Of a stretch of DNA of 64,000 bases, positions 49,065-64,000 are shown one piece after another. The notes below the pieces were generated by a model, which saw only the letters and a program-made list of their open reading frames with translations, did not search any database and was not told the DNA's origin. Position numbers and translations under genes: made by a program. Every line of letters starts with the position of its first letter. Within the stretch, counting starts at the first letter, position 1. This DNA comes from Gordonia sp. X0973. GTDB taxonomy: Bacteria; Actinomycetota; Actinomycetes; Mycobacteriales; Mycobacteriaceae. The stretch lies in contig NZ_CP054691.1 in assembly GCF_013348785.1 (NCBI RefSeq), positions 2,728,001 through 2,792,000 of the forward strand, in the 5' to 3' direction.

Positions 49065-49571
49065 CTAGACTTTGACGCCCATCGACCGGGCCATCGCCCC
49101 CAGGTCGTCGAACCGCTCGCCGCGTGCGGCCAGGATCCATCGGTCGCCGTCGCGGCGCAGGTCGGCGTAGATCAGTGCCCGCTCGCCGCCGAACCGGGCC
49201 TGCAGATCGCAGCGGGCGAGCAGCCCCGCATCGGAATCGGACAGTTCCACGAACCCGGCCGGATAGTCGCCGAAGGTGGTCTGACCGCCGTATGAGCTGA
49301 CCCCGATCGCCACCCGGTCGACGGCCGCCGGCAGGGCGGCGGTGTCGACGGTCAGCTCCTCGCGCCAGCCGGTGCGCACCGAGCGGTCGGAGTTGAGGCG
49401 GACCGCGCCGTTGTAGGCGGCCAGGTTGTTGAAGAACACGAAGTCCGTATCCGAGGTGACCACCGCGCTCGTCGGCAGCACGAAGGCCGCGAGGTCGAGA
49501 TCCAGGGCGACGCCGGGGGGCTGGTCCCAGCCGACCCCGACCGACACCTGCTGCAATCCGGCGCGGCTCAT
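49065..49571 (-). CDS. TerD-family (calcium-binding stress) protein
   Basis: A 168-residue TerD domain: GVGWDQPPGVALDLDLAAFVL (about 9-29), then SDTDFVFFNN, SSYGGQTTFGD and DLQARFGGERALIYADLRRDG. These are the strands and Asp-rich calcium loops of the tellurite-resistance/TerD family. TerD proteins occur with GTPases and vWA proteins in stress and conflict operons (established knowledge). Its ATG overlaps the GTPase gene stop by four bases, making it the terminal gene of the 15-kb operon. Confidence 0.9.
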   Translation of the reverse strand: MSRAGLQQVSVGVGWDQPPGVALDLDLAAFVLPTSAVVTSDTDFVFFNNLAAYNGAVRLNSDRSVRTGWREELTVDTAALPAAVDRVAIGVSSYGGQTTFGDYPAGFVELSDSDAGLLARCDLQARFGGERALIYADLRRDGDRWILAARGERFDDLGAMARSMGVKV

Positions 49572-50716
49572 CGGGCCCCCTCCACCATGACGTTGTTGGC
49601 GGCGAGCACCCAGCGGACCGGGTCGGTGACGCGGAACGGGGAGATGCCGCGGTCGCTGAGCTTCTCCCCCTCCGGCGGGGCGCCGAGCGCGGAGACCGCG
49701 AAGAACCGGTGCTCGTACTGCCGTCCGGTGACCTGGTTGACCATCGTCGTCAGCGCCGGACCGGCGTCGAGACGGGTGAGCAGGCTGCGCACCTCCTCGT
49801 GCAGCCGCAAACCCTCCTCCTCGTCGTAGCCGCGTTCCAGCAGCCCCGGGTCCCGGTTGTAGGCGGCCCCCGGCTGCCCCATCACCTGTCCCCACGAACT
49901 GGCCTGGACCGCCGACAGCGCCTGCAACGCGTCGAACTTGGAGAGGATCACCGCGAGTTTGGGCGACCCGTCGCCGATCAGGTTGGTGACGGTGTGCAGC
50001 ACGTGGCGCGGGTCGCCGCCGACCGTCGTCGACGCGGGGACCAGGTCGCGCAGCTGGTTGGCGACCTCCCCGACGCGCAGCGGGTCGAAGAGGAACAGCA
50101 CCGCGTCGGCGCGGCTGAAGAAGTCCCAGGCAACGCCCCCGACGTCGGCGGCCTCGAGGTCCTCCCCCGCCACGTCGCGGATCACCAGGTACTGCCTGGT
50201 CCCGCCCCATTCGCCGAGGTTGAAGATCAGCGGGTCGTGTTGGTAGCTGCCGTGCAGCGAGGCCCGCGGCGTCGGCTGCAGGATTCCCCGGTCCTCGAAC
50301 AGCGGCGTCTCGTACTCGTCGCGGAACCGGCGGACCGTCTCCTCGTTGGCACCGAAGACCTCCCGGTCCAACCGGGCAGCGAATCGCTGCAGCTGTTTGA
50401 CCAGCACCGCGATGTACACCGTCTTGCCGGTGGCGCGCGCCCCGGCCATCGTGATACAGGTGGCGTTGCCGAAGTACCAGTGCGACGGCAGCACGAAGTG
50501 GCAGTGGGGGCACGCCGCGTCATACGGGTGCTCCGGCGAGGGCGGCCATTCGCCGCTCCACTCCGACCGGTTGGCCACCGTGACCGGCCCCATCCGCACC
50601 TCGCGACCGGCATAGGCCGACGCGACGGGATCGGCGACGACCTGGCGCGGCTCCTTCTCGACCCAGGCGAACACGTCCAGGTGCAGCGGCGAGAAGCACC
50701 GTGGGCACTTGGTCAA
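49568..50716 (-). CDS. Zinc-ribbon TRAFAC-like GTPase (double-GTPase type)
   Basis: A 382-residue protein. Two zinc-binding knuckles, C4-P-R-C7 and C69-P-H-C72, form a split ribbon. A P-loop GARATGKT (92-99), DVAGE as G3 (181-185) and SKFD as G4 (259-262) follow. These fit the GTPases (DO-GTPase/'TRAFAC clade') seen beside GAP1 and TerD proteins. The start is TTG at 50716, overlapping the stop of the vWA gene (TTGA), a rare codon that may set low dosage. The ribbon may bind a partner or membrane complex (inference). Confidence 0.82.
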   Translation of the reverse strand: MTKCPRCFSPLHLDVFAWVEKEPRQVVADPVASAYAGREVRMGPVTVANRSEWSGEWPPSPEHPYDAACPHCHFVLPSHWYFGNATCITMAGARATGKTVYIAVLVKQLQRFAARLDREVFGANEETVRRFRDEYETPLFEDRGILQPTPRASLHGSYQHDPLIFNLGEWGGTRQYLVIRDVAGEDLEAADVGGVAWDFFSRADAVLFLFDPLRVGEVANQLRDLVPASTTVGGDPRHVLHTVTNLIGDGSPKLAVILSKFDALQALSAVQASSWGQVMGQPGAAYNRDPGLLERGYDEEEGLRLHEEVRSLLTRLDAGPALTTMVNQVTGRQYEHRFFAVSALGAPPEGEKLSDRGISPFRVTDPVRWVLAANNVMVEGAR

Positions 50717-51693
50717 CGCGCACCCCCCAGTCCCACGGGCGCCAACAGCGCCGCGACGACCCGCCCGATCCGGTCGGGCTGGGCCACCAGGGCGGTCCCC
50801 GGGTCGGCGACCGGCGCCAACACCGCCCCGCGCAGTCCGGGTCCCGCCGCCGCCGCCGACTCGGAGAGCACCAGCAGCACCTGGTCCGCGGCCGGTTCCA
50901 CCGCGCCGACCGAATCAGTGAGCAGCACGGTCAACGTGCCGGGCGCCGGTGCGACCGCCAGTCCGCCGCTCAGGGCGTAGCCGGCGGCCGGAGCGGCGGC
51001 GAAAGTGCTGCCGACCCGGTCGGCGGGCACCGGGGCGGGCGGGGGCGAGGCCGGGGAGGCATACCCGACGGAGACCTCCGGGGTGCCGGCGACGACGGCA
51101 CCCATTCCCGCGACGATGTCGGCGGCGGCCGCGACCATCCCGGAGGAGAAATGCGCGGCCATCGACGCCGAGGTGTCGACGAGCAGACGGACCGGGCGCG
51201 CCTGCGATTCGGGCACCCGATCGGCTCGGATGACGCCGCGGGTCGCGATCCGGGCCGCCGCGGCCACTGGCGGCAGTGTCCCGTCGGGGACGGTCAGCCG
51301 GGTCGTGACCGACAAGGTGTCCCCCGCGCCGGGGGCGATGCTGGCCAACTCGATGAAGCCGAGACCGGATACGTCGCGCGGGGTCAGTTGGGCGATGTCG
51401 GCCTCGTAGTCGGCGGTGCCGTCCGGCCCGATCGACACGTGCACGGTCGTGCCGCTTGCGAACAACTCGCTTCCCGCGGGCACCGCCGCGATGACGACCT
51501 CCTCGGCCACGCGCGGCAGGATCAACAGCGCGGGCGAGGTCTCGACGACCCCCGCCGCCGGTCCGCCGGCCCGGGTCCGCGCCACCAGCCGCACCCCGTG
51601 GGGATTGGGGGCGCCCGACACGGCGAGGCTGACCGCCAGCGGGCGCCGGGCCAGGGTCGCCGCCGATTTGCCGTCCAACACATAGGTAGCCAC
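50713..51693 (-). CDS. von Willebrand factor A domain protein
   Basis: A 326-residue protein. An N-terminal beta-rich domain (about 1-155) is followed by a vWA fold with the metal-ion site LLVDTSASM (DxSxS, about 171-179), GYASP and LTVLLTDS. The vWA domain would bind a partner through Mg. GTG at 51693 shares its first G with the stop of the preceding gene (TAGTG). A longer reading to 52869 runs through that gene in another frame and is rejected. Confidence 0.82.
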   Translation of the reverse strand: MATYVLDGKSAATLARRPLAVSLAVSGAPNPHGVRLVARTRAGGPAAGVVETSPALLILPRVAEEVVIAAVPAGSELFASGTTVHVSIGPDGTADYEADIAQLTPRDVSGLGFIELASIAPGAGDTLSVTTRLTVPDGTLPPVAAAARIATRGVIRADRVPESQARPVRLLVDTSASMAAHFSSGMVAAAADIVAGMGAVVAGTPEVSVGYASPASPPPAPVPADRVGSTFAAAPAAGYALSGGLAVAPAPGTLTVLLTDSVGAVEPAADQVLLVLSESAAAAGPGLRGAVLAPVADPGTALVAQPDRIGRVVAALLAPVGLGGAR

Positions 51694-54422
51694 TAGCCGA
51701 GTCCTCCCAGTCCGGAATTCGCCGCGATGCCCGTGCGCGCCAACCACTCGGCCGCGGCCGGCCGGTAGTCGGCGAAGAATTTCTCGGCGGCCGCGGGACC
51801 CAGGCCCCGCACCACCAGCCAGCCGGCGTCGCGCAGCCCGGCCACATCGGCCGGTCCGCGATAGGTACCGGCCTCGACCCGCTGGTCGACCAAGGACTGC
51901 GACCATCCCACCGCACCGGCACGATCGTCCGCGAGCGGGCCGGCCCCGGCACCCGCGATGCGCAGGAAAGCCGTGAACGCGTGCCCCGCGACCCATGCCG
52001 GGTCGAGCAGCCAGGCCCATTCGGCGCGCGCGAGTTCGTCGCGGACGCGCTGGTCCAGCGACGTCATCCGGCCGCGCAGCGAGGCGCAGAAAGCCGATTC
52101 GGGATCGGCCCACGGCGCGCCGTCGCTCTGCCCGAGCACGAAACCGGCCGCGGCCATGACGACGAGTTCGTCGGCCGCCTGCCCGACCCAGGCGACGGTG
52201 CCGTCGGGTGCCGGGGTGCTGGCCGACGAGGTGGCCAGCGTCGCGACGCTGGCGCACCACCCGTCGCGGTCGGTGGTGGCGGTGCGGGCCCCGCGGCGCA
52301 ACCAGGCGGCGGCGACGAGTTCGGGCGTCGCCGAGTCGCGCGCGTCCACCACGGCCTGCAGTGCGGCATCCTCCACCTCGCCGTAGAACACCATCGAGTC
52401 GAGGAGCTGCGGGGGCACCCGACCGCTGTCCGCCGAGAAGCGCAACAGATCCTCGGGCGGCGGGGTCGCCAGCGCCACGATCGCACCGACCAGGTCGCGA
52501 CAGTCGTCGTCCTCGAGACGCGCGGCACCCAGCGCCGCGTCGATCGCTGCGCCGGCCAGCGCGCCGCGCGCCGACGGATCCAACCGGTTCGCCGACGATG
52601 CGGGGTCGGCGAGTACCGCTCGCGTCGCGAAACCGAAGAGGTAGTCGTCGTCCGGGGTGGCCGGAGTCGGATGGACGTAGCCGAACGGTCCAAGCGCGCC
52701 GAACAGCCATCCGGCGACGTCGCCGGGCAGCCCCACCAGGCTGGGCACCGCCAGCCGCGCGAACAGCGGGCGGACATGGGCGGCCAGCGTCGGCTCGCTG
52801 ATCGCCGCGGCGTCGAACCGCTCGATCCATCCGGGATCTCCGATGCCGAGGAGCCCGGAACTCGTGCATGCCTGTGTCAGGGCGGCGCGCGCCGCCGTCA
52901 GGTCGGCGTCGGGTGCGGCCAGGCGTTCGACGATCTCCGCCGTGCGCAGCAGCGGCCGCGTCGCCTCCTCCCCCGCACCGGCGAGTTCCCCGGCACGTTC
53001 AGCGATCCGGTCGCGCAGCGGGCCGAGGGGGACGGACTCGACGGCCGGTACCCCGGCGAGGTCGCAGGCGTCGAGCCACGCCGGGTCCGCGCAGGCCGCC
53101 GCCAACACGCAGCGGGCCAACGCCGGGGTGGCCCGGCGGCGCAGCGCCGCCCGGCGCAACCGTGCGAGCGCCTCGTCCGGGGTCGGCGGATAGCGCCGCA
53201 GCGTCGTCTCGACGAGGTCGGCGGCCCACGGCAGCGCGCCCAGTCCGTCGGGGGCGTCGTCCACGACGACGGCGGCGGCATCCGGGTGGAACTCCGCCAG
53301 CTCGGGGTCTTCCAGAACGGCGACGGCGATCGGCCACTCCGGGGCGAGCCGCGCCGCGGGAGCGGCGTCGGCGATTTCGGCGGCGACCCGGTCACGGCGC
53401 GCGAGGATCCGCCGCGCCACGTCGTCGTCGGCCAGCACGGCCTCGGCCAGCACCGAGAGCGCAGTCACCGGCACCGGGCCGGAGGCCACCCGGTGCCCGG
53501 CGGCGGCGCTGTCGCCGAGGTAGGGCTCCTCGTGCTCGTCGACGACGACGCCGGGATACCCGGCCAATTCGCCGAGTCGCGCACGCGGCACCGCGACCAG
53601 GTGCAGTGCCGAACCGGCACCGGCCAGCACCGCGTCGGGGGCATCGTGGGTGCTCCAGGAGAACCGGCGCGCCCCCTGCGGGGTGAGGAACCGGCTGACC
53701 GCGGCGATCCAGGCGGCCGCGCGGTCGTGGTCGTCGACACCGAGGACGACGGTCCCCGGCGCATCCCCGGACAGCCGTGCGGACACCGCGTCGAGCAGGA
53801 CGCGCAGCACGCTGACCCGATCGGCCGCCGGGTCGAGGAGGAAGTCGAGGGTCGCCGCCTCCGACAGCGCGGGATTCGGCGCGGGAGCGGTGCCGCCCGC
53901 GGGCAGGGCGGCGGCGCGCACCTCGTCGGGCCCGTACGGCGAACTCCACCCGGACCAGCGCCACAGTTCGACGGGGAGGAATCCGGCCGGGTCGTCGGGT
54001 GCGTCGTCGGCGAGGACGTGCGCGAAGACGTTGCCCGGGCGCCCGGTGGCGTCGCGCCCGGCGTCGACGGTGTGCCAATAGGCGGCCCGTCCGGTCCCGT
54101 CGGGTCCGGTCGTGTACAGGTAGCTCAGCCGGGCCGGCCTGGTCGCGATCTGCTCGGGCGTGGGGAAGCCGGGCAGGGCCGGCTCCAGGTCGAACCGGGT
54201 GACGATCCGCGCGACCAGCTCGTCGAGGTAGGCCGGGTCGAGGGTGCCGACCACCTGCTTCACCTGCCATCCGCCGCCGTGGCCGCGACCGCCCGGGGCG
54301 GCCATCGCGCTGACGGGCGCCCCCTCGTCGAAGGAGGTGTACGTGAACTGTGCGTAGCGGTCGGCGGCCACCGGTGCCGGGGTGACTCGTCGCGCCGCCT
54401 GGTGTTTGGTCAGGTCTGCCAT
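51693..54422 (-). CDS. GTPase-associated protein 1-like
   Basis: A 909-residue protein. The N-terminal RYAQFTYTSFDEG (22-34) and GGWQVKQVVGTLDPAYLDELV (about 50-70) fit the N-terminal domain of actinobacterial 'GTPase-associated protein 1' (GAP1), including a later RPARLSYLYTT. The rest is helical with Ala-rich repeats and no recognised enzyme motif. It is expected to work with the GTPase encoded two genes on (context). ATG at 54422 is four bases past the preceding stop. The GAP1 assignment is by pattern memory and is moderately sure. Confidence 0.7.
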   Translation of the reverse strand: MADLTKHQAARRVTPAPVAADRYAQFTYTSFDEGAPVSAMAAPGGRGHGGGWQVKQVVGTLDPAYLDELVARIVTRFDLEPALPGFPTPEQIATRPARLSYLYTTGPDGTGRAAYWHTVDAGRDATGRPGNVFAHVLADDAPDDPAGFLPVELWRWSGWSSPYGPDEVRAAALPAGGTAPAPNPALSEAATLDFLLDPAADRVSVLRVLLDAVSARLSGDAPGTVVLGVDDHDRAAAWIAAVSRFLTPQGARRFSWSTHDAPDAVLAGAGSALHLVAVPRARLGELAGYPGVVVDEHEEPYLGDSAAAGHRVASGPVPVTALSVLAEAVLADDDVARRILARRDRVAAEIADAAPAARLAPEWPIAVAVLEDPELAEFHPDAAAVVVDDAPDGLGALPWAADLVETTLRRYPPTPDEALARLRRAALRRRATPALARCVLAAACADPAWLDACDLAGVPAVESVPLGPLRDRIAERAGELAGAGEEATRPLLRTAEIVERLAAPDADLTAARAALTQACTSSGLLGIGDPGWIERFDAAAISEPTLAAHVRPLFARLAVPSLVGLPGDVAGWLFGALGPFGYVHPTPATPDDDYLFGFATRAVLADPASSANRLDPSARGALAGAAIDAALGAARLEDDDCRDLVGAIVALATPPPEDLLRFSADSGRVPPQLLDSMVFYGEVEDAALQAVVDARDSATPELVAAAWLRRGARTATTDRDGWCASVATLATSSASTPAPDGTVAWVGQAADELVVMAAAGFVLGQSDGAPWADPESAFCASLRGRMTSLDQRVRDELARAEWAWLLDPAWVAGHAFTAFLRIAGAGAGPLADDRAGAVGWSQSLVDQRVEAGTYRGPADVAGLRDAGWLVVRGLGPAAAEKFFADYRPAAAEWLARTGIAANSGLGGLG

Positions 54423-54426
54423 CGGT

Positions 54427-56796
54427 TCACCACCCGGGCTGCGCGGCCGGCGGCGGAGGCGGGCTGATCCACAGCGATGCCATCGGCGGGTCGAGCATGC
54501 CGATGGGCGGGCGGGCATCGCCGCGCGCCGGGTCGGCGACGAAGATCCGCACGAAACCGGTCAGATTGGTCAGGTCGACGACCCACGGCGTGACGGTGCG
54601 CCCGGCCGGGATCTCGCCGTAGATCTGACAGTGCGGCCGTTCCTCGCCCATATCCGAGCCGAAGCGGAGGGTGCGCCCGTCGGAGGCGTCGAGGGGAAGG
54701 CGTTCGGGCCGGTGGACCGCGACGAGCGGCGGGAGGTCGCTGACGGCGACCTCTGCGTGCAGCACCAGGCGGACGACGGTGCGCCCGGGCCCGGCCGCCA
54801 CCGGCTCGAACTGGTAGGCCATGCGGATCAAGCCGCGGTAGGGCAGCCCGACCGCTTCGCCGGTGATCTCCCGACCGGCCGAATAAGAGACCGGGACCAG
54901 GTAGACGTGGCATCCCTTGGGGGTCAGTGGCCGGGTGAGGATCAGCGCGCCGTCGCGTTCGTACTGCTCGGCGCTGACCTCGCCGAAGGGCTTGCCGGTC
55001 AGCAGTTGCTCGCTCGGGATGGATGCCGGTCCGATGTAGGCGCGCACCGCGGCTGCACCGCGCGGCCACCCGAAGGTGATCATCTCGCAGTGGAAGCGCT
55101 CGACGATCTGCGGCTCCACCACGCCGGGCAGCGGTCGGGCCAGGACGCGGGTCGTCCCGATGCGCGCCCGCCCGGCGGCGACGGTAACGGGGGTGAGGTA
55201 GGCGCGATCCCACCCGCTGGGCCACGGCACCCCGGTCATCTGCGAGAAGGTCGGGTCCTGGCCGGCCTTCGCCGGATGGCGCACCCGCGTCTCCTCGGTG
55301 AACCCCTGCACCGACAACGCCTCCAGCGGCAGGTCCTCGCGCTCGAGCCCGGCCGGGGGCGGCTGCTGGAATCGGTAGACCCGCACCTCCTGCCCGCTCT
55401 CCGGGGTGGTCCAAGCCAGGTCGAACAGGGAGCCGTTGTCGTTGATTGCGACCTGCAGGTCGGCGATGGACGCCAGGTCGACCGAGACGAGGATCTCCTG
55501 CTGCGCCGGGCGCGAGAGGCGCAGCGATTCGCCGACGGGCACCTCGGCCAGGGCGCGGTACAGATAGCGGCGCCCGCGCGGCACGTCGGCGTCGACGAAG
55601 CCGGTGAGATTCGCGTCGTCGACGCAGATCTGGAAGCGCGGGTCGGTGGTCGCGGGGCCGCCGGCGTCGAGCGGGATGCGGAACACCCGCACCGCCCGGG
55701 TGCCGGGGAACACCGACCACTCGCCGACGACGCGGCCTGTGTCCTCGGTCAGCACCATGTCCTCGACCGGGCTGATGTCCTGCCCGATCGCCCACTGCAC
55801 CGGCTGTGCCGCACGGGCGGCGGCCTCGCTGTCGCCGACATGCGCCCACACCTGGTAGTGGCGCACGGCGCTGGTCAGGAAGCGGTTGTCCTCGGCCGCG
55901 GTGGCCGCGGTGACGCCGACCAGCTCGCCCGCCTCCGGTTTGTACGGTGGCACGTCGTCGCCGGACACGACGCGGTAGAGGACGACGGGGCCGCCGGGAA
56001 ACGGATCCCAGGCCAGCCGCACACCGTCCGGGGTGGTCGCGATGCGCAGCGCTCCCGGTGCGATGTCGGTCTCGGGGTACTCGTAGTCGCAGAAGTCGGC
56101 ATGCGTCAGCGGCAGGAGGCTCGACGCCGGGGGCGCGCTCCGGGTGACGGCGGAGGGAGTCGGCGACGGCGCGACGGCCGGCGCGGGGGGCGACGGCGCG
56201 ACGGCGGCGGTCGGCTCCGGCGGAGCCTGCGACGGCGCGGAGGACGGCGCATAGCGGGCGAACAGGGCCGCCAGCTCCTCGACGAGGTCGGCGGCGCCGG
56301 GCAGCTTCTTGCGGATCTGCTCGGCGCTCACCGGCGCACGCTTGGCCAGGTTGCGCAGCGTGATGTCCTTGATCGTCTCCGCCCCTGGCGCCCCCTGCGC
56401 GATCTTCTCCCCGCGCCACGCGATGAGGGCCGCGGTCAGCGCGGCGAGCGGGTCGGCACTGCCCGCCCGCGCCGCGGACCCCTCGTCGTCGACGGTGGGC
56501 GCACGGTGGGCTCCGGCGGTGCCCGATGCGGGCGGCGGACCCGCGGGTGATGCCAAGCGGTCCGGCAGGTGGGCGACCGCGATCGCCGGCAGCACCCCGA
56601 GCTCGACCTGACCGAGCAGGTGGTCGATGGCGGCACCCCACCACTGCGCGACCGGCGAGGCGCCGCTGTCGCGCCAGGTGCCGGGGTGCTCGGCGATCAG
56701 GTGCAGCTCGTCGGCGGCGGGGACGGGCACATCCCGTGCCGCCACCCCCTGTGCCCACAGCTGCAGGGCAGCCGTCAGGTCCGAATCGGACGCCAT
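54427..56796 (-). CDS. Helical plus fibronectin-III-like protein
   Basis: A 789-residue protein. The N-terminal helical part (about 1-190) contains a SAP/SAM-like stretch (DITLRNLAKRAPVSAEQIRKKL). A Pro/Ala/Ser linker (about 190-230) follows, then several beta-rich repeats. The first repeat reads like an FN3 domain (VRLAWDPFPGGPVVLYRVV then RHYQVWAHVG). No signal peptide is present, so it is probably cytoplasmic, forming a scaffold with neighbouring products (inference). ATG at 56796 is two bases from the preceding stop. I cannot name a precise family. Confidence 0.68.
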   Translation of the reverse strand: MASDSDLTAALQLWAQGVAARDVPVPAADELHLIAEHPGTWRDSGASPVAQWWGAAIDHLLGQVELGVLPAIAVAHLPDRLASPAGPPPASGTAGAHRAPTVDDEGSAARAGSADPLAALTAALIAWRGEKIAQGAPGAETIKDITLRNLAKRAPVSAEQIRKKLPGAADLVEELAALFARYAPSSAPSQAPPEPTAAVAPSPPAPAVAPSPTPSAVTRSAPPASSLLPLTHADFCDYEYPETDIAPGALRIATTPDGVRLAWDPFPGGPVVLYRVVSGDDVPPYKPEAGELVGVTAATAAEDNRFLTSAVRHYQVWAHVGDSEAAARAAQPVQWAIGQDISPVEDMVLTEDTGRVVGEWSVFPGTRAVRVFRIPLDAGGPATTDPRFQICVDDANLTGFVDADVPRGRRYLYRALAEVPVGESLRLSRPAQQEILVSVDLASIADLQVAINDNGSLFDLAWTTPESGQEVRVYRFQQPPPAGLEREDLPLEALSVQGFTEETRVRHPAKAGQDPTFSQMTGVPWPSGWDRAYLTPVTVAAGRARIGTTRVLARPLPGVVEPQIVERFHCEMITFGWPRGAAAVRAYIGPASIPSEQLLTGKPFGEVSAEQYERDGALILTRPLTPKGCHVYLVPVSYSAGREITGEAVGLPYRGLIRMAYQFEPVAAGPGRTVVRLVLHAEVAVSDLPPLVAVHRPERLPLDASDGRTLRFGSDMGEERPHCQIYGEIPAGRTVTPWVVDLTNLTGFVRIFVADPARGDARPPIGMLDPPMASLWISPPPPPAAQPGW

Positions 56797-56798
56797 GC

Positions 56799-59492
56799 TC
56801 AGCCCTGCCCCATCTCCGGCGCCCGGAACCGGTCCGGTGTCGCCCCGAGCCCGCTCGGGTCGGCCGCCCCGGACTGGCGGACCGGCGACTGCGGCACCTC
56901 CCACGTCGTCCCGGACGCGGCGGCGGCACTGCCCTGCGCCCGCAGGTAATCCAGCCCGATGGCCTCCGACAGTTGGGTCGCGACGCAGACGATGCCCAGG
57001 CCGGTGCGGACGCGGTGGCGGGTGTCGACGCGGACGGCCGCCGCCCCGTTGGTCACCGCGATGTCGGTGAGCAGGGCGTGGTCGAAGGACCCGCTCGGCG
57101 CGGCGTCACGGTCGATCCCGGCGAGGAACTCCGCGAGCGGCAGCGGGGCGCCGCCAGACACGGCGACCGTGCCGACCAGGCGGGGGACGAGTTCCCCGAG
57201 GGATCCGCCCAGCGAGTGCAGCGCTTTGCCCCACACCAGGTCGGCCCCGGTCGAACCGATCACGCCGCCGAACAGATCGGTGGACCAGCGGTCCAGCGAG
57301 GTTCCGCTGCCCATCCCATGGTCGAGCCACACCGGCGACGCCTGCGCCCCGACCTCGCGCGAACCGACGCGCGGCGGGATGTAGGTGGTGATGATCGAAT
57401 CCCACGACTCGGTCAGCCAACCGGGCCGGAACAGGTCCTGGCGCAGGTAGCCGACCGCCTCGTTGACGTCGCCGCCATTCGGCTGGGCAGTCCCGAGACC
57501 GGTGGACAACGGCAGGCCGGAGGTGATCGGCAAACCGGTGGCGGCGGCCGCCGACGGGGTGCCGAGCGGCGCCTCGAGGTAGGCGCCGAGGGCCCGGTTC
57601 CAGGAGAGGAATTGGCGGTACGCCTGCGAGAGCCGCCGGACGTCGCGCAACGCCTGGCGCAGGTTGTGGCGGTCCACCTCCAGCCGGTCGATGCTCGCGC
57701 GCCGTTGGTGCAGCATGGCGAAGATGGTCCGCTGGGATTGGATGAACCCCCACAGGCAGAGTCCGAAACCGATCAGGACCGCCGCCACGATCACCAACAG
57801 CGACACCCACCACTGCACGTCCCACTTGACGGTGAGGTACACGAACAGACCGGTGAGCAGGAGCAGCAGCACGACGGTCAGCTGGACGGCGCGGCCCAGC
57901 GACTTATTGCGCTGGTCGGGCTCCGGCGGCGGTGCGACGGCGGTGTTCACCTGGTGCAGCAACTGCTGCACCTCGTTGTAGGCGCCGTAGAAGGCGTCGG
58001 CGAGTCGCTCGGCGGCGGCCACCCCGAAACTGCGGCCCAGGGTGCGCCGCCAACCGGACAGTTCGGTGAGCGTCGAGCGGGCCGCCACCCCCTGGTCGGA
58101 GCTGGATTCCAGTTCGGTCAACCGGTTGGACAGGTCGGCGGCGCCCAGCACGTCCACCGGGTCGACCGACGCGCAGTCGACGGCGGCCTGCACCGGGCCG
58201 GGAATGGCCCGGAACGCCGACGCCGGCCCCGGCACGACCTGCGCCGCATACTTGACGATCCCGCGCGCCGAGCCGACCTGGATCGGCGGCAGGTCGCGGC
58301 TGCGCGCCCCGGCGTCGGCGAGGGTGAGCGCCGCCCTGGCATAGTCCTGCCACACCTGCGAGAGGTCGGAATCGGCGTCGGCCAACTGGCCCGTCGGATC
58401 GAAGAGCGCACCGGACAGCGCATTCGAGGCGGCGCCGATGTCCTCCCACCCGGCGACCCGGCCCGCCGAGGTGCGGCCGTTGACCACCACCTGGTAGGCG
58501 GCGGGCTGACCGGCGAAGACCGCCTCTTCGACCCCGACCGCGATCTTCGACGACACGCTGTCGACGACACTGCGGTACCAGGCGCCGGGGGCGTTGCGGA
58601 TCGACGCCCATACGAATCTGGCGAACATCCTGAGCACCGCCATCGCGCCGATCTGCTGCGGCGGGGTGGCGGAATAGGACTGTCGCGGACCGCGCAGCAC
58701 GGCGGCGTATTTGCGCCAGAAGCCGTCGGCCATCGCGGTGGTGGCCGTCGCCGCGTCGGAGACGTACACCACCTGAGAGCGCTGGTCGCTGGGCAGCGGC
58801 AGCACGCCGTCCGAACTCAGCAGCGACGTGCTCAGCTCGGACTCCACCTCGTCGGTGCGCAGGCTGCGGTAGAAGGAGCGGGCCAACCGGACCGACTCCC
58901 CCGGGACGACGGGCAGCGCGTCGAGGGGCGCGTGGTCGACGCCGGCCCACAGCCCGGCCAGGCCGGCGACGACCGGAGCGCTGTAGCGGCCCAGGTCGTC
59001 GGGGCCCACCCCGGCTGGCAGCGGAATGCGGCCGTAGTCCGGGCCGCGCGAATCCTCCGGGGAGATCGCGATGTTGTGCCAACCCGGCACGGCCAGCTCG
59101 GCGGGGGCGCCGGCGACCTCGGTGCCGCGCACGAGCAGCGCGCGAATGCGGACGACCGAGCCGGCGCCCGTCGCGGAGATCAACTTGTCGGCTACGCCGG
59201 TCTCGTCGGCCACTGACAGCCGCCGCGCACCGGGCAGTGCCGGGACCACCGAGCACACCCGCAGCACCTGGGTGCGCCGCGCCGAGACCAGATCGGGCAC
59301 GGTGACGTCGCGGGCGATCCCCTGCGAGACGAGCACGACCGTGGACAACGGCGCCTGCCCGTCCGGGTCGCCGATCCACAGGAAGTCGTCGACCATGCCC
59401 GCCGCGGACAGATCGCACAGCGCGGAGAACACGCTGTGCGCGAGCCCGCTCGGTGCGAGGAGCGCGGTCAGCGTCGTGGGCCGCGACGGCAT
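56799..59492 (-). CDS. Two-helix membrane protein of the tubulin-like operon
   Basis: An 897-residue protein with a soluble N-terminal half, two adjacent membrane helices (about 533-553 and 557-582) and a further soluble domain of about 300 residues. A coiled-coil-like stretch (RASIDRLEVDRHNLRQALRD) follows the second helix. I do not recognise the family. It could anchor the system at the membrane (inference). Its ATG overlaps the stop of the tubulin-like gene by one base (TGATG). Confidence 0.75.
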   Translation of the reverse strand: MPSRPTTLTALLAPSGLAHSVFSALCDLSAAGMVDDFLWIGDPDGQAPLSTVVLVSQGIARDVTVPDLVSARRTQVLRVCSVVPALPGARRLSVADETGVADKLISATGAGSVVRIRALLVRGTEVAGAPAELAVPGWHNIAISPEDSRGPDYGRIPLPAGVGPDDLGRYSAPVVAGLAGLWAGVDHAPLDALPVVPGESVRLARSFYRSLRTDEVESELSTSLLSSDGVLPLPSDQRSQVVYVSDAATATTAMADGFWRKYAAVLRGPRQSYSATPPQQIGAMAVLRMFARFVWASIRNAPGAWYRSVVDSVSSKIAVGVEEAVFAGQPAAYQVVVNGRTSAGRVAGWEDIGAASNALSGALFDPTGQLADADSDLSQVWQDYARAALTLADAGARSRDLPPIQVGSARGIVKYAAQVVPGPASAFRAIPGPVQAAVDCASVDPVDVLGAADLSNRLTELESSSDQGVAARSTLTELSGWRRTLGRSFGVAAAERLADAFYGAYNEVQQLLHQVNTAVAPPPEPDQRNKSLGRAVQLTVVLLLLLTGLFVYLTVKWDVQWWVSLLVIVAAVLIGFGLCLWGFIQSQRTIFAMLHQRRASIDRLEVDRHNLRQALRDVRRLSQAYRQFLSWNRALGAYLEAPLGTPSAAAATGLPITSGLPLSTGLGTAQPNGGDVNEAVGYLRQDLFRPGWLTESWDSIITTYIPPRVGSREVGAQASPVWLDHGMGSGTSLDRWSTDLFGGVIGSTGADLVWGKALHSLGGSLGELVPRLVGTVAVSGGAPLPLAEFLAGIDRDAAPSGSFDHALLTDIAVTNGAAAVRVDTRHRVRTGLGIVCVATQLSEAIGLDYLRAQGSAAAASGTTWEVPQSPVRQSGAADPSGLGATPDRFRAPEMGQG

Positions 59493-62400
59493 CAGAAGCC
59501 GTCCGGCTTCCCCGGTGCCTGCGGCGCCGTCGGGTCGGGGGCCGCGGACCCCATCGGGGGCGGGTTGAACGAGTCCATCGAGGGGGCCGCGAAGGTCTCG
59601 CCGGACTGGAAGGTCGGGGCCGTCGTCGGCGCCGCCCCGCCCTGCTCGGCGAGGGCGACCGCCGCGTCGAGGACGCCCAGCAGCTCGTTGGTCGCCCAGT
59701 AGATATCCGGCGCGATGTCGCGGTAGATGGGTGTCTTGGACGCCTGCTCGCGCACCGTGATGCGGGCGAACACACCGGTCCCCTCCGCCCCGGACTGTCC
59801 CGGTCCGGCGCCCTCACCGGGCTCCATGTAGTTCTTCGACACGAACTCGTGCTGGTAGGCCAGGTAGGCGCGCAGCCGTTCCGCGCGATCGCGAATCGAG
59901 ACGCCGGGGCCGGTGTCGGCGATGACCGACGCCACGCCGGTGCCGGTCTCCCCGGTGCGCAGCCAGTTGGCCATATTGGTGACCGCGGCGAGTTGGCGCT
60001 GGTCCAGCCCGGTCGACGGGTTCTCCGCGCCGGCGTCGAAGATCGCGCGCAACGCGCGGTAGGGGGCCATCGACGCCATCACCGGCGGCTGGTGGCTCTG
60101 CGCGATCGCGACGAGCAGCGACTCCAGCACGGCGGGCAGCCAGTCGTACTCGGCGAGGAATTCCGACGGCGGGGTGAGCAGTGGGTTCGGGAAGGGCAGC
60201 CAGCGACTTGCCTGGGAGTCCCACACGTGGACGGCGTCGGCGAACGGCGGCCCCGGAATCTGGACCTGACCGATCGCCTGGCCGAGCAACCAACCGCCGA
60301 CCATGGCCCGCCGCTCGTTCTCGTGCATCGGCAGGCTCGCCTGCAGCGGCCGGGAGCGGCGCATCGTCCAGAACGCCTTGCGCTGCCCGGGCGACGACGC
60401 CAGCCACTGGCGGGCGGCCGGTTCGATCACCGCCTCGTAGGCCAGCGGCGAGTAGTTCGGATAGGACCCGAAGATGTCGATGCGCTTGATCTTGGCCTCG
60501 TCGGTGAGCGCGTTGCCCAGGGCGTCGGCACTCTTCTTGTCGACGCGCGCGGTCGCGGCGAGAGCGGTCTTGAGGTCGCCGGCGACGGACAGGCCCAGGA
60601 ACGGGATGGCCGAGAACTTGTACCGGTAGGTCATCTCGGCGACGCCGTGGATGGCCTGCATGGCGTTCTCGTTGACGCTCGCCAGCGGGCGGGCCAGGTT
60701 GACCGCCTCGCCGAAGCGCAGCTCCAGATCGGTGCGGCGCGCGGCGCGCTCGGACTCCGGCGCGTCCTCGCCCTCGACGTATTGGCGCAGCGAGACCGAG
60801 CAGAACCGGTCGAAGGACTCCCCGGTGCGCGCGACGAAGCGGCGCGAGCGCCCCAGCAGCTCGGCCGGGCGCAGGTGGACGTCGTAGGTCGCGCGCTGCG
60901 CGATGAGGCCGTCGCCGGTCTCCGGGTGGCGCGGGAAGGCCCGCGAGACCCAAGTCGTGGTGCGTTCGACGACGGGCTGCTCGGCCGCCGGGCTCGTGCT
61001 GCCGTCGACGGTGGTCCAGAAACCGGTGATGACGTGCCCGGCCGCGCGCGAGATGCCCTCGCCGAGGAGCCGCGGGTCGCTGGAGGTCGCCCCTACCGAG
61101 GCGGGCAGGTCCATCTCGTAGCGCTGCTTGAACTCCGCCGACCGGGTCAGCATGACCTCGTTGTCGGCCTCGGAGAAACGTTCGGCGACGAGTTCGTCGG
61201 TGTCGGCCGGCCAGGCCGCGTACTCGTCGGTCTGCAGCAGGGCCAGGCCGACCTGCTGCCGGTTGGCACCGGCCGCCTGGCGCAGCAGGGTCTGGGATTC
61301 GTTCAGCGCGTCGACCAGCGGGTCGAACACCTCGGTGATCATCGCGCCGACCGCGTTCCCGACGTGGTGGGCCAGGGCCGCGTAGACCTGCCGCTCGACG
61401 GTGCGCGCCGAACCGGCGAACACCTCGTCGGCGATCGGGGCCGGGTTGGCGATCGTCCCCGAGAGCGAGGCCAGCGTCGCCTTGACCTCGGGCGGCAGGT
61501 CGGCGATGTCGGGCGGGCCGTACTTCGACAGGTCGGTCATCGCGGGCAGGATCACCTCGTCGAGCAGGCGTGCCACGCGCTTGACCATCCCCGTCGCGTA
61601 CGGCAGGCCCTGGGTGGCCAGCGCGCGGGCCGTCGCCTGCTCGAGGGCCCCGGCGAAGTGCAGGTGCCAGTTGAAGGCCTGGTGGTAGGCGACCGAATTG
61701 GCCCCCTCGGCCAGGGCGTGGCGGCGCTCGGCCAGGACCTGTCCGACTCGCGCAGCCCACTGCTCGCCGTTCACCCCGGGCGTCTGGTCGATCATCGGCC
61801 GGACCGCGGTGTTGACGACCCCGCGGGCCTGTGCGAAGACCTGGTCACCCGGCAGCACCGAGGACATCAGCCACTGCGCCAATCCGGACGACGATCCGTC
61901 CGCCCCCTCCGGCAGCCCCAGCGAGTAGCAGATGTTGCTCCACTGGTTGTCGAGGATGGCGTTGACCTGCTCCTCGTCGGAGGCGTCGTTGCCGGGCTGG
62001 AGGTGTCCGCGCAGCAGCTTGTCGACGCTGCTGCGGGCCAACCGCTGCGACGAGTACTCGGCGTAGCGGTCCCGGCCCATCGACAGGCTCGCGTAGCCGA
62101 AGGTGCCCCAGGGCACGTTGTTCCACTGCTTGTTGCCCCAACCCAGGTACTCCAGCGAGCCCTGATCGCCGACGGCGTTGGTGAGATCCCATTCGACGAA
62201 TTGCTGGGTGGCCGACCCGGACAGCATCAGCCCGGCCAGTCCGCGACCGAGGCCGCGGTAGACCGCGCCCGGCGTGCCGTCGCCGAAGATGGTGCGCTGC
62301 GCGCCGACATACCGGCCGACGGGGAAGACGCGCGCGAACGGGATCAGTGTCCCCTCGCCGTGCTCGTGGCCCAGGGCGCGCAGGAGAGCGACGTCGGTGG

Positions 62401-63142
62401 CGCGGGCCGAACCGGTCTGGCTGGCCACGATCTCACCGAGCATGGCCAGCGCATTGGCGCGGGTGCCGGTGATCGCCGAATCGGGCAGCGTCTCGAAGAT
62501 GTCGGGGGTCACCATGAACACACCCATGAGGCGCGGGTCGACGCCCTGCACGAGGGTGAGGATGCGGCAGACGTCGAGCGCCATCGACGCCCCGGCGCCG
62601 CCGGCCATCGAGGAGACGACGAGCACGATCGGCTGGTCGTTGGAGCTGTAGGCCCCGGCGCCCGGGATCTTCAGCGAGCGCATCTCGGTGTCGGTGGGGT
62701 TGGTGAACAGTTCGTCCCAGGCGCGCTGCAGCGCCTTGCGGACGGTGTCGACCCGGCTCAGCGTGATCATCCGGCCCAGTGCGCGGTATTGGCCGGCGCC
62801 GGTGGACAGCGGCGTGTAGACGGTCTCCGGGTCGCGCGGCGCCCAGGTGGCGATCGTGTCGAGTTCGTTGTTCGCGACGAGGCGCTGGGTCATGGCGTTG
62901 TCGAGGACCTTGTAGCTGTCGCTCTCCGGGCCGGTGCCGACGTAGACCCCGCCCTGGTCGGGCACGGTTCCGACGCCGGGGACCCCCGACGGCGACGTCG
63001 GGACGTCGAGGTGCACGAACTGCCAACCCGAGGGCAGTTTGTCGATCCCGTGGGCCCGCAGGTCCGACTTCAGCTGATCCATCATGTAGGCCAGCGCGGC
63101 TCCACCGGAACCACCGCAGCCGACCACCAGAAAGCGCTTCAT
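59492..63142 (-). CDS. Tubulin-like protein (Tubulin_2 family)
   Basis: A 1216-residue protein. Its first about 300 residues fit the bacterial tubulin-like domain. The start is a nucleotide-binding MKRFLVVGCGGSGGAAL (1-17), GAGQYRALGR lies near 116-124, and the tubulin/FtsZ signature loop appears as MAGGAGASMALD (179-190), a variant of GGGTGSG. The long remainder is helical and unrecognised. Such proteins sit in operons with GTPases, vWA and TerD proteins. It may form filaments or a nucleotide-dependent platform (inference). ATG at 63142 is used. Confidence 0.82.
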   Translation of the reverse strand: MKRFLVVGCGGSGGAALAYMMDQLKSDLRAHGIDKLPSGWQFVHLDVPTSPSGVPGVGTVPDQGGVYVGTGPESDSYKVLDNAMTQRLVANNELDTIATWAPRDPETVYTPLSTGAGQYRALGRMITLSRVDTVRKALQRAWDELFTNPTDTEMRSLKIPGAGAYSSNDQPIVLVVSSMAGGAGASMALDVCRILTLVQGVDPRLMGVFMVTPDIFETLPDSAITGTRANALAMLGEIVASQTGSARATDVALLRALGHEHGEGTLIPFARVFPVGRYVGAQRTIFGDGTPGAVYRGLGRGLAGLMLSGSATQQFVEWDLTNAVGDQGSLEYLGWGNKQWNNVPWGTFGYASLSMGRDRYAEYSSQRLARSSVDKLLRGHLQPGNDASDEEQVNAILDNQWSNICYSLGLPEGADGSSSGLAQWLMSSVLPGDQVFAQARGVVNTAVRPMIDQTPGVNGEQWAARVGQVLAERRHALAEGANSVAYHQAFNWHLHFAGALEQATARALATQGLPYATGMVKRVARLLDEVILPAMTDLSKYGPPDIADLPPEVKATLASLSGTIANPAPIADEVFAGSARTVERQVYAALAHHVGNAVGAMITEVFDPLVDALNESQTLLRQAAGANRQQVGLALLQTDEYAAWPADTDELVAERFSEADNEVMLTRSAEFKQRYEMDLPASVGATSSDPRLLGEGISRAAGHVITGFWTTVDGSTSPAAEQPVVERTTTWVSRAFPRHPETGDGLIAQRATYDVHLRPAELLGRSRRFVARTGESFDRFCSVSLRQYVEGEDAPESERAARRTDLELRFGEAVNLARPLASVNENAMQAIHGVAEMTYRYKFSAIPFLGLSVAGDLKTALAATARVDKKSADALGNALTDEAKIKRIDIFGSYPNYSPLAYEAVIEPAARQWLASSPGQRKAFWTMRRSRPLQASLPMHENERRAMVGGWLLGQAIGQVQIPGPPFADAVHVWDSQASRWLPFPNPLLTPPSEFLAEYDWLPAVLESLLVAIAQSHQPPVMASMAPYRALRAIFDAGAENPSTGLDQRQLAAVTNMANWLRTGETGTGVASVIADTGPGVSIRDRAERLRAYLAYQHEFVSKNYMEPGEGAGPGQSGAEGTGVFARITVREQASKTPIYRDIAPDIYWATNELLGVLDAAVALAEQGGAAPTTAPTFQSGETFAAPSMDSFNPPPMGSAAPDPTAPQAPGKPDGF

Positions 63143-63208
63143 CTCGTTATCAATCCTCTTCGCGAACTATTTGTCCATCTGCGGCCCACCCCGAACCGGG
63201 CGGCAGCC

Positions 63209-64000
63209 TCACCGTTGGAACGGGTTGAAATCCGTCCCGGCCTGGCCCGGCTGCCCCGCCGGACCCGGTTGCGGGTTCGGTTGCGGGTTCGATTGTGCCG
63301 GATCGGTCGGAGCGGCCGTCGGTCCGGCGGGGGATGCGGCCGGCGGGCCGTAGGGATTGACCGGCCCGGCTCCGCCCGGTCGCGGCGGGCCGAATGCCCC
63401 CGGCGCGGGCGGCGGCACCGGAGCGCCGAACGGATCGGCACCGGGTCCGCGGCCACCGCTGCCGAAGGGATCGGCACCGGCGGGTCCGGCCGCGGCGGCA
63501 CCGGCCTGGGCGCGCAGCGTCGCGAGCCCGGGTCCGAGGTGCTCGGTGATCTCCTCGGTGAACCGGGCGAGCACCGGCTCCCCCGCGTCGGCACCGGCCA
63601 GCACGACCACCGTCGCCCGGTCCGGCGCGCCGTTGGGGTCGTGCAGGATGAACCACCGGTTGTGGACCGCCAGTGGCAGCTTGGCATCCGGGTTCGGCCC
63701 CACCGTCTCGCCGCTCTTGCCCGCGGCGCCGACCGTCCCCGGCGCACTCGCCTGCACGTATCCGGTACCGAACGGCGACCGTCCGACGCGGGTGTCCAGA
63801 CTGATCCCGTCACCGAGGTCGAGGTGCCGCGACGCAGCGGCCGTCCCCGGCACCATGCGCACCAGATCGGTGTCGGCGAAGGCGAAGGGCTCGCCGTCGC
63901 GCAACACGCTGGAGCCGCTGATCGTCACCGGAATCGCCTGGGCGCGCAGCGACCGGGCCGGGATGCGGGCCGTCCACCACTTGGCCAGGTAGGCCAGGCC
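63209..64000 (-). CDS. First visible gene of the operon, partial at right edge
   Basis: An open reading frame that continues beyond the window: the 24 codons upstream of the GTG at 63928 stay open and read like protein (LAKWWTARIPARSL). The visible 263 residues comprise a beta-rich region and a helix, followed by a Pro/Gly/Ala-rich tail of about 90 residues ending FNPFQR. I do not recognise the fold. A vWA or secretion-linked protein upstream of the tubulin-like gene is possible. The stop is 66 bases ahead of the tubulin-like gene. Confidence 0.7.
   Translation of the reverse strand, partial: GLAYLAKWWTARIPARSLRAQAIPVTISGSSVLRDGEPFAFADTDLVRMVPGTAAASRHLDLGDGISLDTRVGRSPFGTGYVQASAPGTVGAAGKSGETVGPNPDAKLPLAVHNRWFILHDPNGAPDRATVVVLAGADAGEPVLARFTEEITEHLGPGLATLRAQAGAAAAGPAGADPFGSGGRGPGADPFGAPVPPPAPGAFGPPRPGGAGPVNPYGPPAASPAGPTAAPTDPAQSNPQPNPQPGPAGQPGQAGTDFNPFQR

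What the first reader, a model, noticed from the sequence alone, without database searches (positions are those of the whole stretch)
49065..64000. Fifteen-kilobase tubulin-like/GTPase/vWA/TerD operon
Seven complete genes and one partial gene run on one strand with gaps of at most 66 bases and several 1-4 base overlaps. The products are a tubulin-like protein, a two-helix membrane protein, an FN3-like protein, a GAP1-like protein, a vWA protein, a zinc-ribbon GTPase and TerD. Related assortments are known from comparative genomics as putative stress or conflict systems, but the biochemical role is not established. Two different nucleotide-binding folds plus a membrane component suggest a switchable assembly at the membrane.
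Basis: partly seen in the sequence, partly recalled or inferred. Interest (0 to 1): 0.85.

Follow-up and report, generated by a model that had tools for sequence, protein, structure and literature searches.

The report
Membrane-tethered tubulin and GTPase operon
A Gordonia bacterium carries a nine-gene kit, described before from genome surveys but untested as far as I could find, that appears to build a tubulin-like scaffold on the inside of the cell membrane; across many relatives the tubulin and its membrane partner end in the same short tail that changes in step, a first handle on how the kit is wired together.

Summary
A tight minus-strand operon (gaps -4 to 66 bases) encodes TerD, a zinc-ribbon DO-GTPase, a small vWA protein, GAP1, an FN3-like protein, a two-helix membrane protein (2TM), a Tubulin_2 protein (TUB) and, past the window end to 66712, a membrane vWA protein and a three-helix membrane protein. 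It is of a kind known from genomics: the actinobacterial tubulin theme of GAP1-N2 GTPase-centric systems (Kaur 2020), within the FtsZl1/vWA/GTPase system (Makarova and Koonin 2010). My searches found no experimental paper.

New here: (1) across 29 genome clusters the last residues of TUB and 2TM match within a genome and co-vary between genomes (z 10.5, 0 of 20000 permutations; 14 control pairs null). In the window's own genome this match is absent. (2) 2TM sits where other actinobacterial classes have a membrane-hairpin Tubulin_2 paralogue, and its model resembles tubulin weakly: perhaps a hidden, membrane-anchored tubulin. (3) In Gordonia the operon lies 8-23 kb from a ter-cluster gene (7 genomes) or, in one clade (7), next to infA with its own degenerate TerD. 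Best reading: a GTPase-controlled, membrane-coupled tubulin scaffold for stress or conflict.

The parts
49065..49571 (-). TerD-domain protein (168 aa), short form lacking the first hairpin and the GDGDDE motif of canonical TerD
   Evidence: Pfam TerD 2.5e-28; alignment with 5 canonical Gordonia TerDs; the only TerD match in the genome
49568..50716 (-). DO-GTPase with N-terminal CPxC...CPxC zinc ribbon (382 aa)
   Evidence: DO-GTPase2 28.0 bits vs cut-off 27; P-loop GARATGKT, RDVAGED and SKFD region conserved
50713..51693 (-). vWA2: small vWA protein with MIDAS (326 aa), no signal peptide seen
   Evidence: D173, S175, S177, D260 invariant in 12 of 12; VWA_2 in 3 and vWA-TerF-like in 2 of 12 relatives, best E 0.0019 and 0.0032; no family for the window protein itself
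51693..54422 (-). GAP1 (GTPase-associated protein 1), N2 type (909 aa)
   Evidence: GAP1-N2 1.8e-18, GAP1-M 6.7e-9
54427..56796 (-). FN3-like protein (789 aa)
   Evidence: fn3 weak in 3 of 13 relatives; designed FN3 protein at E 0.21 in the PDB profile search
56799..59492 (-). 2TM: membrane-hairpin protein, possible degenerate tubulin paralogue (897 aa); tail 856-897 modelled as disordered
59492..63142 (-). TUB: Tubulin_2 (FtsZl1-type) protein with long helical extension and low-complexity C-terminal tail (1216 aa)
63209..64000 (-). vWA1: membrane vWA protein, 3' part inside the window (whole gene 63209-66052, 947 aa): N-terminal hydrophobic signal (read), MIDAS vWA, one TM, Pro-rich tail with DPF/NPF motifs
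   Evidence: VWA_2 1.7e-9; hydrophobic segments 17-35 and 669-687; NPF/DPF counts

Best explanation
A membrane-coupled tubulin machine of the GAP1-N2/DO-GTPase kind. Inferred working: vWA1 puts its metal-dependent vWA domain outside the membrane as a sensor; its cytosolic tail and the MP tail carry repeated (N/D)PF motifs that gather the inner parts. The zinc-ribbon DO-GTPase with GAP1 is the switch. TUB forms or nucleates a GTP-dependent assembly. 2TM, a membrane-hairpin tubulin relative, holds that assembly on the membrane: in many relatives TUB and 2TM end in the same short tail, read by one fast-evolving partner encoded by the system (which one is unknown). TerD and vWA2 act as ligand-binding adaptors. 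The output is a membrane scaffold or remodelling event under stress or invasion. Shown: gene content, sequence families, tubulin fold of TUB, hydrophobic segments, co-varying tails across the family, ter linkage in Gordonia, purifying selection. Inferred: topology, assembly, sensor role, reader, output.
For: Family content and recurring order. Tubulin fold of TUB 1-378. Hydrophobic segments: vWA1 two, MP three, 2TM a hairpin; flanking positive residues of 2TM read by eye, so both ends probably cytosolic. TUB/2TM tails, 68 loci in 29 clusters (some loci are the same species under two names; one value per cluster): last 6 residues own 11.1 vs other -2.2, z 10.5, 0 of 20000; 14 other protein pairs z -1.5 to 1.8; z falls to 7.0, 5.7, 3.0, 1.2 for 6-mers ending 2, 4, 6, 8 residues before the end. 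2TM has the best-matching end among a median of 79 open frames in 16 of 29 clusters. 109 of 189 identical residues use different codons, which speaks for protein-level selection. vWA1/MP tails resemble each other more within than between genomes (z 3.5, 3 of 20000; 12 controls z -1.4 to 1.3); (N/D)PF: 49 and 16 copies in 13 Gordonia vs 1.3 and 0.7 in shuffles. In other classes of the phylum a gene with a strongly hydrophobic hairpin or segment directly follows TUB; one matches Tubulin_2 over cut-off (36.8 bits vs 27).
Against: In the window's own genome the C-terminal match is absent (GKPDGF vs PEMGQG, score -9, rank 84 of 153) and the local tail match is no better than shuffles (46 of 100); only a looser [WFY]x[AVPT]P motif, chosen after looking, is shared in 14 of 14 Gordonia, and it is hardly enriched outside Gordonia in TUB (7 vs 5.3). 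In 13 of 29 clusters 2TM is not the best-matching end; own pair is the best of its row in 13 of 29. Of three further distant genomes one fails and by eye four deeper ones show no clear match. 2TM and TUB show no profile similarity (E 0.13); Foldseek finds nothing for 2TM, or for TUB, at E<=0.001. The T7/H8 stretch of TUB is poorly modelled (323-377 under pLDDT 50) and no acidic pair there is invariant, so hydrolysis-driven polymerisation is unproved. The scan for a co-varying reader gave no clear winner.
Confidence: 0.5

Rival explanations
1. Anti-phage or other conflict system (Kaur et al.): FN3 proteins sense an invader, the DO-GTPase/GAP1 pair sets a threshold, the tubulin assembles to contain the invader or kill the cell.
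For: Same family (PMC7159879 section 29, read). Patchy: TUB in 14 of 59 Gordonia, 74 of 242 Corynebacterium, one of them a fragment, 7 of 298 sampled genomes of the order. Presence/absence between sister species: 18.3 kb in G320 against 29 bases in G340.
Against: No PADLOC match for any of 9 proteins (the 2023 library need not contain it). The same core parts recur in the 30 loci; variable effectors were not searched for systematically. Kept in 7 of 7 members of one clade at a core locus.
Confidence: 0.35
2. A branch of the Ter chemical/envelope-stress response: the operon is the membrane and scaffold module that works with TerD/TerC products.
For: In 7 of 7 Gordonia with the operon away from infA, a PRTase_2 gene of the ter cluster lies 8-23 kb from TUB on the same contig (places). 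Flanks of G301 hold StiP-PELOTA, PRTase_2-TRSP, C-C bond lyase, AIM24 x2, TerD, TerC-like; G320 TerC-like, StiP/PRTase_2 and TerDs, G339 a double TerD. TerD in the fetched stretch of 14 of 14 Gordonia. vWA2 relatives hit vWA-TerF-like (2 of 12, E 0.0032).
Against: 0 of 7 infA-site genomes have PRTase_2 near TUB: G304 and G309 have it on other contigs, G000 and four relatives have none over cut-off and a single TerD each, so the operon persists without a ter cluster. Of 45 Gordonia without TUB, 25 have TerD, so ter does not need it. No TerD seen at the 16 non-Gordonia loci (most stretches short). The operon TerD lacks the GDGDDE motif.
Confidence: 0.3
3. Constitutive membrane remodelling or envelope growth machinery (Makarova and Koonin): vesicles, poles or septa rather than stress.
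For: Tubulin_2/vWA/GTPase context described as membrane remodelling (PMC2875224, parts 1-2 read). In this clade the operon is fixed between a holin-like gene and infA in 7 of 7 genomes.
Against: TUB not found in 45 of 59 Gordonia, so not essential to growth in the genus.
Confidence: 0.2
4. The matching TUB/2TM tails are an artefact: ribosome-binding sites of the next gene, gene conversion, or a general degron.
For: Both genes end at tight junctions with the next gene; many tails are Gly/Phe-rich; two of the 29 clusters (G651, G819) rest on weak 2TM assignments.
Against: GAP1, vWA2 and GTPase end at equally tight junctions in the window and show no effect. Codons differ at 109 of 189 identical positions (loci not independent). 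A general degron would be conserved rather than switch between lineages (PGEDLF, PGLD, PRSRA, TGIL, LDETF).
Confidence: 0.07

Closest known systems
[quoted passage not shown]
   Same: GAP1-N2 + GAP1-M, zinc-ribbon DO-GTPase, a Tubulin_2 protein with helical C-terminal extension, FN3-like protein, membrane vWA protein
   Different: Section 29 describes a single tubulin; here the adjacent membrane protein may be a second, degenerate one. TerD occurs once in the main text, in another system; 'C-terminal tail', 'tellur' and 'Corynebacterium' do not occur in it. I saw no mention of the MP protein or of ter clusters in the passages read. The HRDC fusion was not detected. Figures and supplements not seen.
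FtsZl1 / vWA / GTPase membrane-remodelling system (Makarova and Koonin 2010, PMC2875224)
   Same: Tubulin_2-type FtsZ-like protein with long helical C-terminal part, MIDAS vWA proteins, P-loop GTPase, TM proteins (that FtsZl1 is Pfam Tubulin_2: passage)
   Different: None of the nine proteins matches an OmpA or kinase model; GAP1 and TerD present
Ter-dependent stress response clusters (Anantharaman, Iyer, Aravind 2012; paper not held, known from its citation and from recall)
   Same: TerD domain; in seven other Gordonia the operon lies 8-23 kb from PRTase_2, with StiP, C-C bond lyase, TerC-like or TerD genes identified in the flanks of G301, G320 and G339
   Different: The window's genome has no PRTase_2 match and one TerD only; that TerD is degenerate
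FtsZ C-terminal peptide and its membrane tethers (recalled)
   Same: A tubulin-family protein with a disordered tail ending in a short peptide that could dock to a membrane partner
   Different: Here the membrane protein carries the same peptide rather than its receptor, and the peptide changes from lineage to lineage

Membership tests
GAP1-N2 GTPase-centric system, actinobacterial tubulin theme | GAP1 with N2-type N-terminal domain and GAP1-M | tested here: met
   67.3 and 36.3 bits, cut-offs 24
GAP1-N2 GTPase-centric system, actinobacterial tubulin theme | DO-GTPase with N-terminal zinc ribbon(s) and conserved Glu in Walker B | tested here: met
   28.0 bits vs 27; CPRC and CPHC in the sequence; G184 invariant, D181 and E185 near-invariant although one of 11 rows was a wrong stretch
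GAP1-N2 GTPase-centric system, actinobacterial tubulin theme | tubulin fused to a C-terminal alpha-helical domain | tested here: met
   Tubulin_2; helices in 389-599 of the model; residues 601-1216 not modelled
GAP1-N2 GTPase-centric system, actinobacterial tubulin theme | FN3-repeat protein | tested here: inconclusive
   fn3 in 3 of 13 relatives at best E 0.016, none for the window protein
GAP1-N2 GTPase-centric system, actinobacterial tubulin theme | HRDC domain fused to the FN3 protein | tested here: inconclusive
   no HRDC model hit at E<=0.1 in 13 members
GAP1-N2 GTPase-centric system, actinobacterial tubulin theme | membrane-bound protein with vWA domain | tested here: met
   vWA1: VWA_2 38.7 bits vs 27; hydrophobic segments 17-35 and 669-687
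FtsZl1 / Tubulin_2 family | Tubulin_2 profile over cut-off and tubulin/FtsZ fold | tested here: met
FtsZl1 / Tubulin_2 family (2TM protein) | Tubulin_2 profile or significant profile similarity | tested here: not met
   no Tubulin_2 hit, hhalign E 0.13 to TUB; only fold resemblance and paralogues in other classes point there, so it is not filed as a member
Polymerising, hydrolysing tubulin/FtsZ | T7-loop catalytic acidic residues | tested here: inconclusive
   region modelled under pLDDT 50; no invariant acidic pair there
Ter stress system | TerD domain | tested here: met
   99.3 bits vs 25.3
Ter stress system | ter biosynthetic gene PRTase_2 in the genome | tested here: not met
   no match in G000
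Catalogued anti-phage defence system (PADLOC) | match to a PADLOC-DB 2.0 model | tested here: not met
   0 of 9 proteins at E<=0.1
Anti-phage conflict system | protects against phage | not testable with these tools
   needs experiment

The most novel reading that the evidence does not exclude
A bacterial two-tubulin machine in which a soluble tubulin and a membrane-hairpin tubulin carry the same lineage-specific C-terminal 'password', read by a single self-encoded receptor, so that assembly is tied to the right membrane sites; a second password ((N/D)PF-like) on the vWA1 and MP tails wires the sensor side. The passwords drift in step, as in an insulated, fast-evolving signalling or defence module.
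Probability: 0.35. Interest if true: 0.87.

Novelty: new variant of a known kind. Interest (0 to 1): 0.7.

Why it matters
The system was named twice from genome context (2010, 2020), and my searches of an open-licence library showed no experiment on it. The co-varying tails turn a list of domains into a wiring hypothesis with a simple test, and the control panel shows a Tubulin_2 gene over the cut-off in Corynebacterium glutamicum, a common laboratory species. If 2TM is a membrane-anchored tubulin, bacteria have a tubulin pair of a kind I have not seen described, held in the membrane by a hairpin. The ter linkage offers stress conditions to try first.

Tried and rejected
TerD as evidence of tellurite resistance: set aside (lone, degenerate copy). 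vWA2 N-terminal half as a TerD domain: looked alike by eye, but hhalign of vWA2 to TerD gave E 0.8, so dropped. 2TM-TUB homology by sequence profile, whole and by domain: no match. Co-variation scan for the tail reader: best windows lie in the DO-GTPase (r 0.31 and 0.29) and TUB (r 0.20) among 230 windows of mean -0.06, sd 0.10; no permutation test was made, so the GTPase is a lead, not a result. PDB profile searches of vWA2, FN3 and TUB gave nothing at E below 0.03, TUB's fold showing only by structure. Foldseek hits of 2TM at E 0.038 or worse, many to long-helix pore proteins, were taken as chance; the viral library gave nothing at E<=0.001. Promoter/terminator scan uninformative: 0 and 1 found against 0.5 and 3.9 in shuffles. 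Whether the operon is a mobile element was not pursued beyond (no tRNA in the window); mutual exclusion with VMAP systems was not tested. In one search the FN3 row of L013, the GAP1 rows of G266 and G339 and the vWA1 row of L016 were mis-extracted or cut; one search filtered by length. Several MP starts are uncertain, which weakens. The G339 row is a canonical TerD, not an operon copy.


Full report
WHAT IS THERE. The window is bases 2728001-2792000 of a 3.75-Mb single-contig genome. The nearest named TUB relative is in Gordonia araii, 87 percent identical. GC-frame and start-codon analysis gives nine genes on the minus strand in the order MP, vWA1, TUB, 2TM, FN3-like, GAP1, vWA2, DO-GTPase, TerD, with gaps 0, 66, -1, 2, 4, -1, -4, -4. 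MP and most of vWA1 lie beyond the window end. The listed ORF 49065-50513 is longer than TerD: TerD begins at 49571 and the GTPase occupies another frame. Upstream lie genes that read as secY, adk, map, dtd and three small ones including a divergent holin-like one; downstream infA starts 213 bases after TerD. These flanking names come from reading the sequences, not from profiles.

FAMILIES. Pfam gives Tubulin_2, GAP1-N2, GAP1-M, DO-GTPase2, TerD and VWA_2 (vWA1) over their cut-offs and nothing over cut-off for vWA2, FN3-like, 2TM and MP. NCBIfam has nothing near a cut-off and PADLOC nothing at E<=0.1. vWA2 has a MIDAS in 12 of 12 relatives and is hit by VWA_2 in 3 and vWA-TerF-like in 2 of 12. 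dN/dS is 0.09-0.14 for TUB, 0.13-0.15 for the GTPase, 0.29-0.34 for GAP1, and up to 0.36 for the rest, in four pairs of genomes (the TerD of the pair G301/G341 was not the operon's).

DISTRIBUTION AND PLACE. TUB is found in 14 of 59 Gordonia, 74 of 242 Corynebacterium, one of them a short fragment, 7 of 298 sampled genomes of the order and 7 of 345 of the class; the Tubulin_2 family in 17 of 396 of the phylum. These tallies include the window's own genome where it was in the sample. In 30 loci 2TM starts within 150 bases of TUB in 29 (in G087 it is 2.3 kb away) and FN3 hits within 200 bases of 2TM in 23; in G051, G087 and G198 the FN3 and GTPase hits share one ORF, and L013 is a mis-extraction. 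vWA1, GAP1 and DO-GTPase are each seen in 29 of 30; the misses are at contig ends (G308, G339) or near the end of the fetched stretch (G087). On a SecY+Adk+Map tree the seven Gordonia with the operon between the holin-like gene and infA form one clade (SH-aLRT 96) with no member lacking it; the seven with the operon elsewhere need five changes. Of 32 other Gordonia in which both neighbours were found on the fetched stretch, 25 have a gap under 1 kb and 7 a gap of 1.2-9.3 kb; in the remaining ones one or both neighbours were not on the stretch.

THE TER LINK. In all seven 'elsewhere' genomes a PRTase_2 gene lies on the same contig 8-23 kb from TUB (places); at the infA site 0 of 7 do. The G301 flanks hold StiP-PELOTA, PRTase_2-TRSP, C-C bond lyase, two AIM24, TerD and a TerC-like gene; G320 a TerC-like gene, a StiP/PRTase_2 fusion and TerDs, G339 a double TerD. 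The sister species G320 and G340 differ by this block: 18.3 kb against 29 bases inside the ter cluster, with flanks 92-94 percent identical. TerD was found in the fetched stretch of 14 of 14 Gordonia: overlapping or abutting the GTPase in G000, G346 and G309, 590-778 bases after it in seven, inverted about 1.9 kb after it in three (of which G301 also has one directly after the GTPase), and upstream of the operon in G339. None was found at 16 other loci, but eleven of those stretches end within 1.7 kb of the GTPase. G000 and its four closest relatives have no PRTase_2 over cut-off and exactly one TerD each. In 10 operon-side TerDs aligned, the first hairpin and the GDGDDE stretch of canonical TerDs are missing (that this stretch binds calcium is recalled). 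Read together: the operon was a ter-cluster neighbour in Gordonia, moved once to the infA site with a TerD, and kept it where the other ter genes are gone. The direction of the move is inference. The TUB tree largely follows the species tree, except that G308 groups with the G329 group; the root forks of the species tree are weak (56), so vertical loss and transfer within Gordonia are not separated.

THE TAILS. While reading C-termini I saw that TUB and 2TM often end alike in one genome: PGEDLF/PGEDLF, SLDDTF/DLDETF, PGQGEF/PGEGEF, QMPGLD/KLPGLD, FGDGLV/FGEGLV, KPRSRA/TPRSRA, DTTGIL/DPTGIL. A first test used 13 clusters (0 of 20000 for TUB/2TM; the lowest control value, 376 of 20000 for 2TM/FN3, did not recur, and the FN3 row of L013 was mis-extracted). 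I then fetched 40 further genomes (38 gave both proteins) and repeated it on 68 loci in 29 clusters at 60 percent TUB identity: mean BLOSUM62 score of the last six residues 11.1 for own pairs and -2.2 for others, z 10.5, 0 of 20000 permutations, own pair best in its row in 13 of 29; 14 other protein pairs gave z from -1.5 to 1.8 over three word lengths, with 19 to 29 clusters each. Sliding inwards the z falls to 7.0, 5.7, 3.0 and 1.2 at 2, 4, 6 and 8 residues. 2TM is the best match among all open frames of the fetched region in 16 of 29 clusters, where by my arithmetic about 0.4 would be expected. Of 189 identical positions in 408, 80 use the same codon and 109 a different one (loci related, some duplicate). 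In three more distant genomes examined afterwards two match (G1362 +14, G678 +15) and one does not (G1435 -8); by eye four deeper ones do not. Against: in the window's own genome the ends do not match (-9; rank 84 of 153) and the other 13 Gordonia are weak, ranks 3 to 109. Gordonia tails share instead [WFY]x[AVPT]P: in TUB 14 of 14 genomes, 21 copies against 5.2 in shuffles; in 2TM 14 of 14, 21 against 3.2; vWA1 17 against 8.4, MP 11 against 7.4, FN3 6 against 3.7, GAP1 0 against 1.5; with one genome per cluster TUB 7 against 5.3 and 2TM 10 against 4.5. These genomes are related and the motif was chosen after looking.

A SECOND CODE. The vWA1 tail and the MP N-terminal region, both probably cytosolic, carry (N/D)PF in 13 of 13 Gordonia each, 49 copies against 1.3 and 16 against 0.7 in shuffles; with one genome per cluster 20 against 1.8 (10 of 29) and 9 against 0.8 (7 of 21); Gordonia TUB and 2TM tails have 4 each against 0.7 and 0.5. 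Aromatic motifs in the vWA1 and MP tails resemble each other more within than between genomes (z 3.5, 3 of 20000 over 23 clusters; 12 control pairs -1.4 to 1.3). This is weaker evidence than the TUB/2TM tails, since the motif was noticed first and some MP starts are uncertain.

HOW IT PROBABLY WORKS. An outside metal-dependent vWA sensor, a GTPase/GAP1 switch, and a tubulin assembly docked on a membrane-anchored tubulin partner through a common tail reader. The tails argue for a reader that evolves with them, hence probably system-encoded; a scan for it did not settle on one, the DO-GTPase being the best lead. Whether the output is defence, stress tolerance or membrane remodelling is open.

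KNOWN OR NEW. The gene set is the actinobacterial tubulin theme of Kaur et al. 2020 (outline with abstract, section 29 whole, and passages seen) and falls within the FtsZl1 system of Makarova and Koonin 2010 (first two of five parts read). Two further papers were seen as passages only; the rest as search listings. In my searches the listings showed no experimental study of the system and no title or abstract start on shared tails, a membrane-anchored second tubulin or ter linkage of this theme; the library holds open-licence papers only, listings were capped, and the 2012 Ter paper was not held.

Noticed in passing
L012:1-23582: In Corynebacterium sp. TAE3-ERU12 the same operon lies between genes that read as rpoB-rpoC and rpsL-rpsG, again inside a core information-processing gene block (named by reading, not by HMM).
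   Followed up: no
L093-L094 (G109): This non-Gordonia relative has several small proteins with NPFG-rich N-termini flanking the operon on both sides, besides the MP copy, as if the small membrane protein were amplified.
   Followed up: no
L154 (G351), between the holin-like gene and infA: A 9.3-kb gap of unexamined content sits at the very junction that the operon occupies in the window's clade: the infA junction may be a hotspot.
   Followed up: no
L087:5879-9346: Two AIM24-family genes and a 403-aa gene without Pfam match precede the operon in G301; a 395-aa gene without match lies in the G320 cluster too.
   Followed up: no
L218, L219 (G1392, G1222): Tandem short ORFs (about 500-573 aa) with Tubulin_2 matches beside an ORF that reads like a CobW-type GTPase: a different arrangement of paired tubulins.
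   Followed up: no
G051, G087, G198 (L099-L104): FN3-like and DO-GTPase hits fall in one long ORF, as if the two proteins were fused in these families.
   Followed up: no
window:48852-49064: The spacer between TerD and infA holds a TAATATAGAT stretch on the coding strand, a possible promoter of infA, so infA need not depend on the operon (sequence; not covered by a reported site).
   Followed up: no
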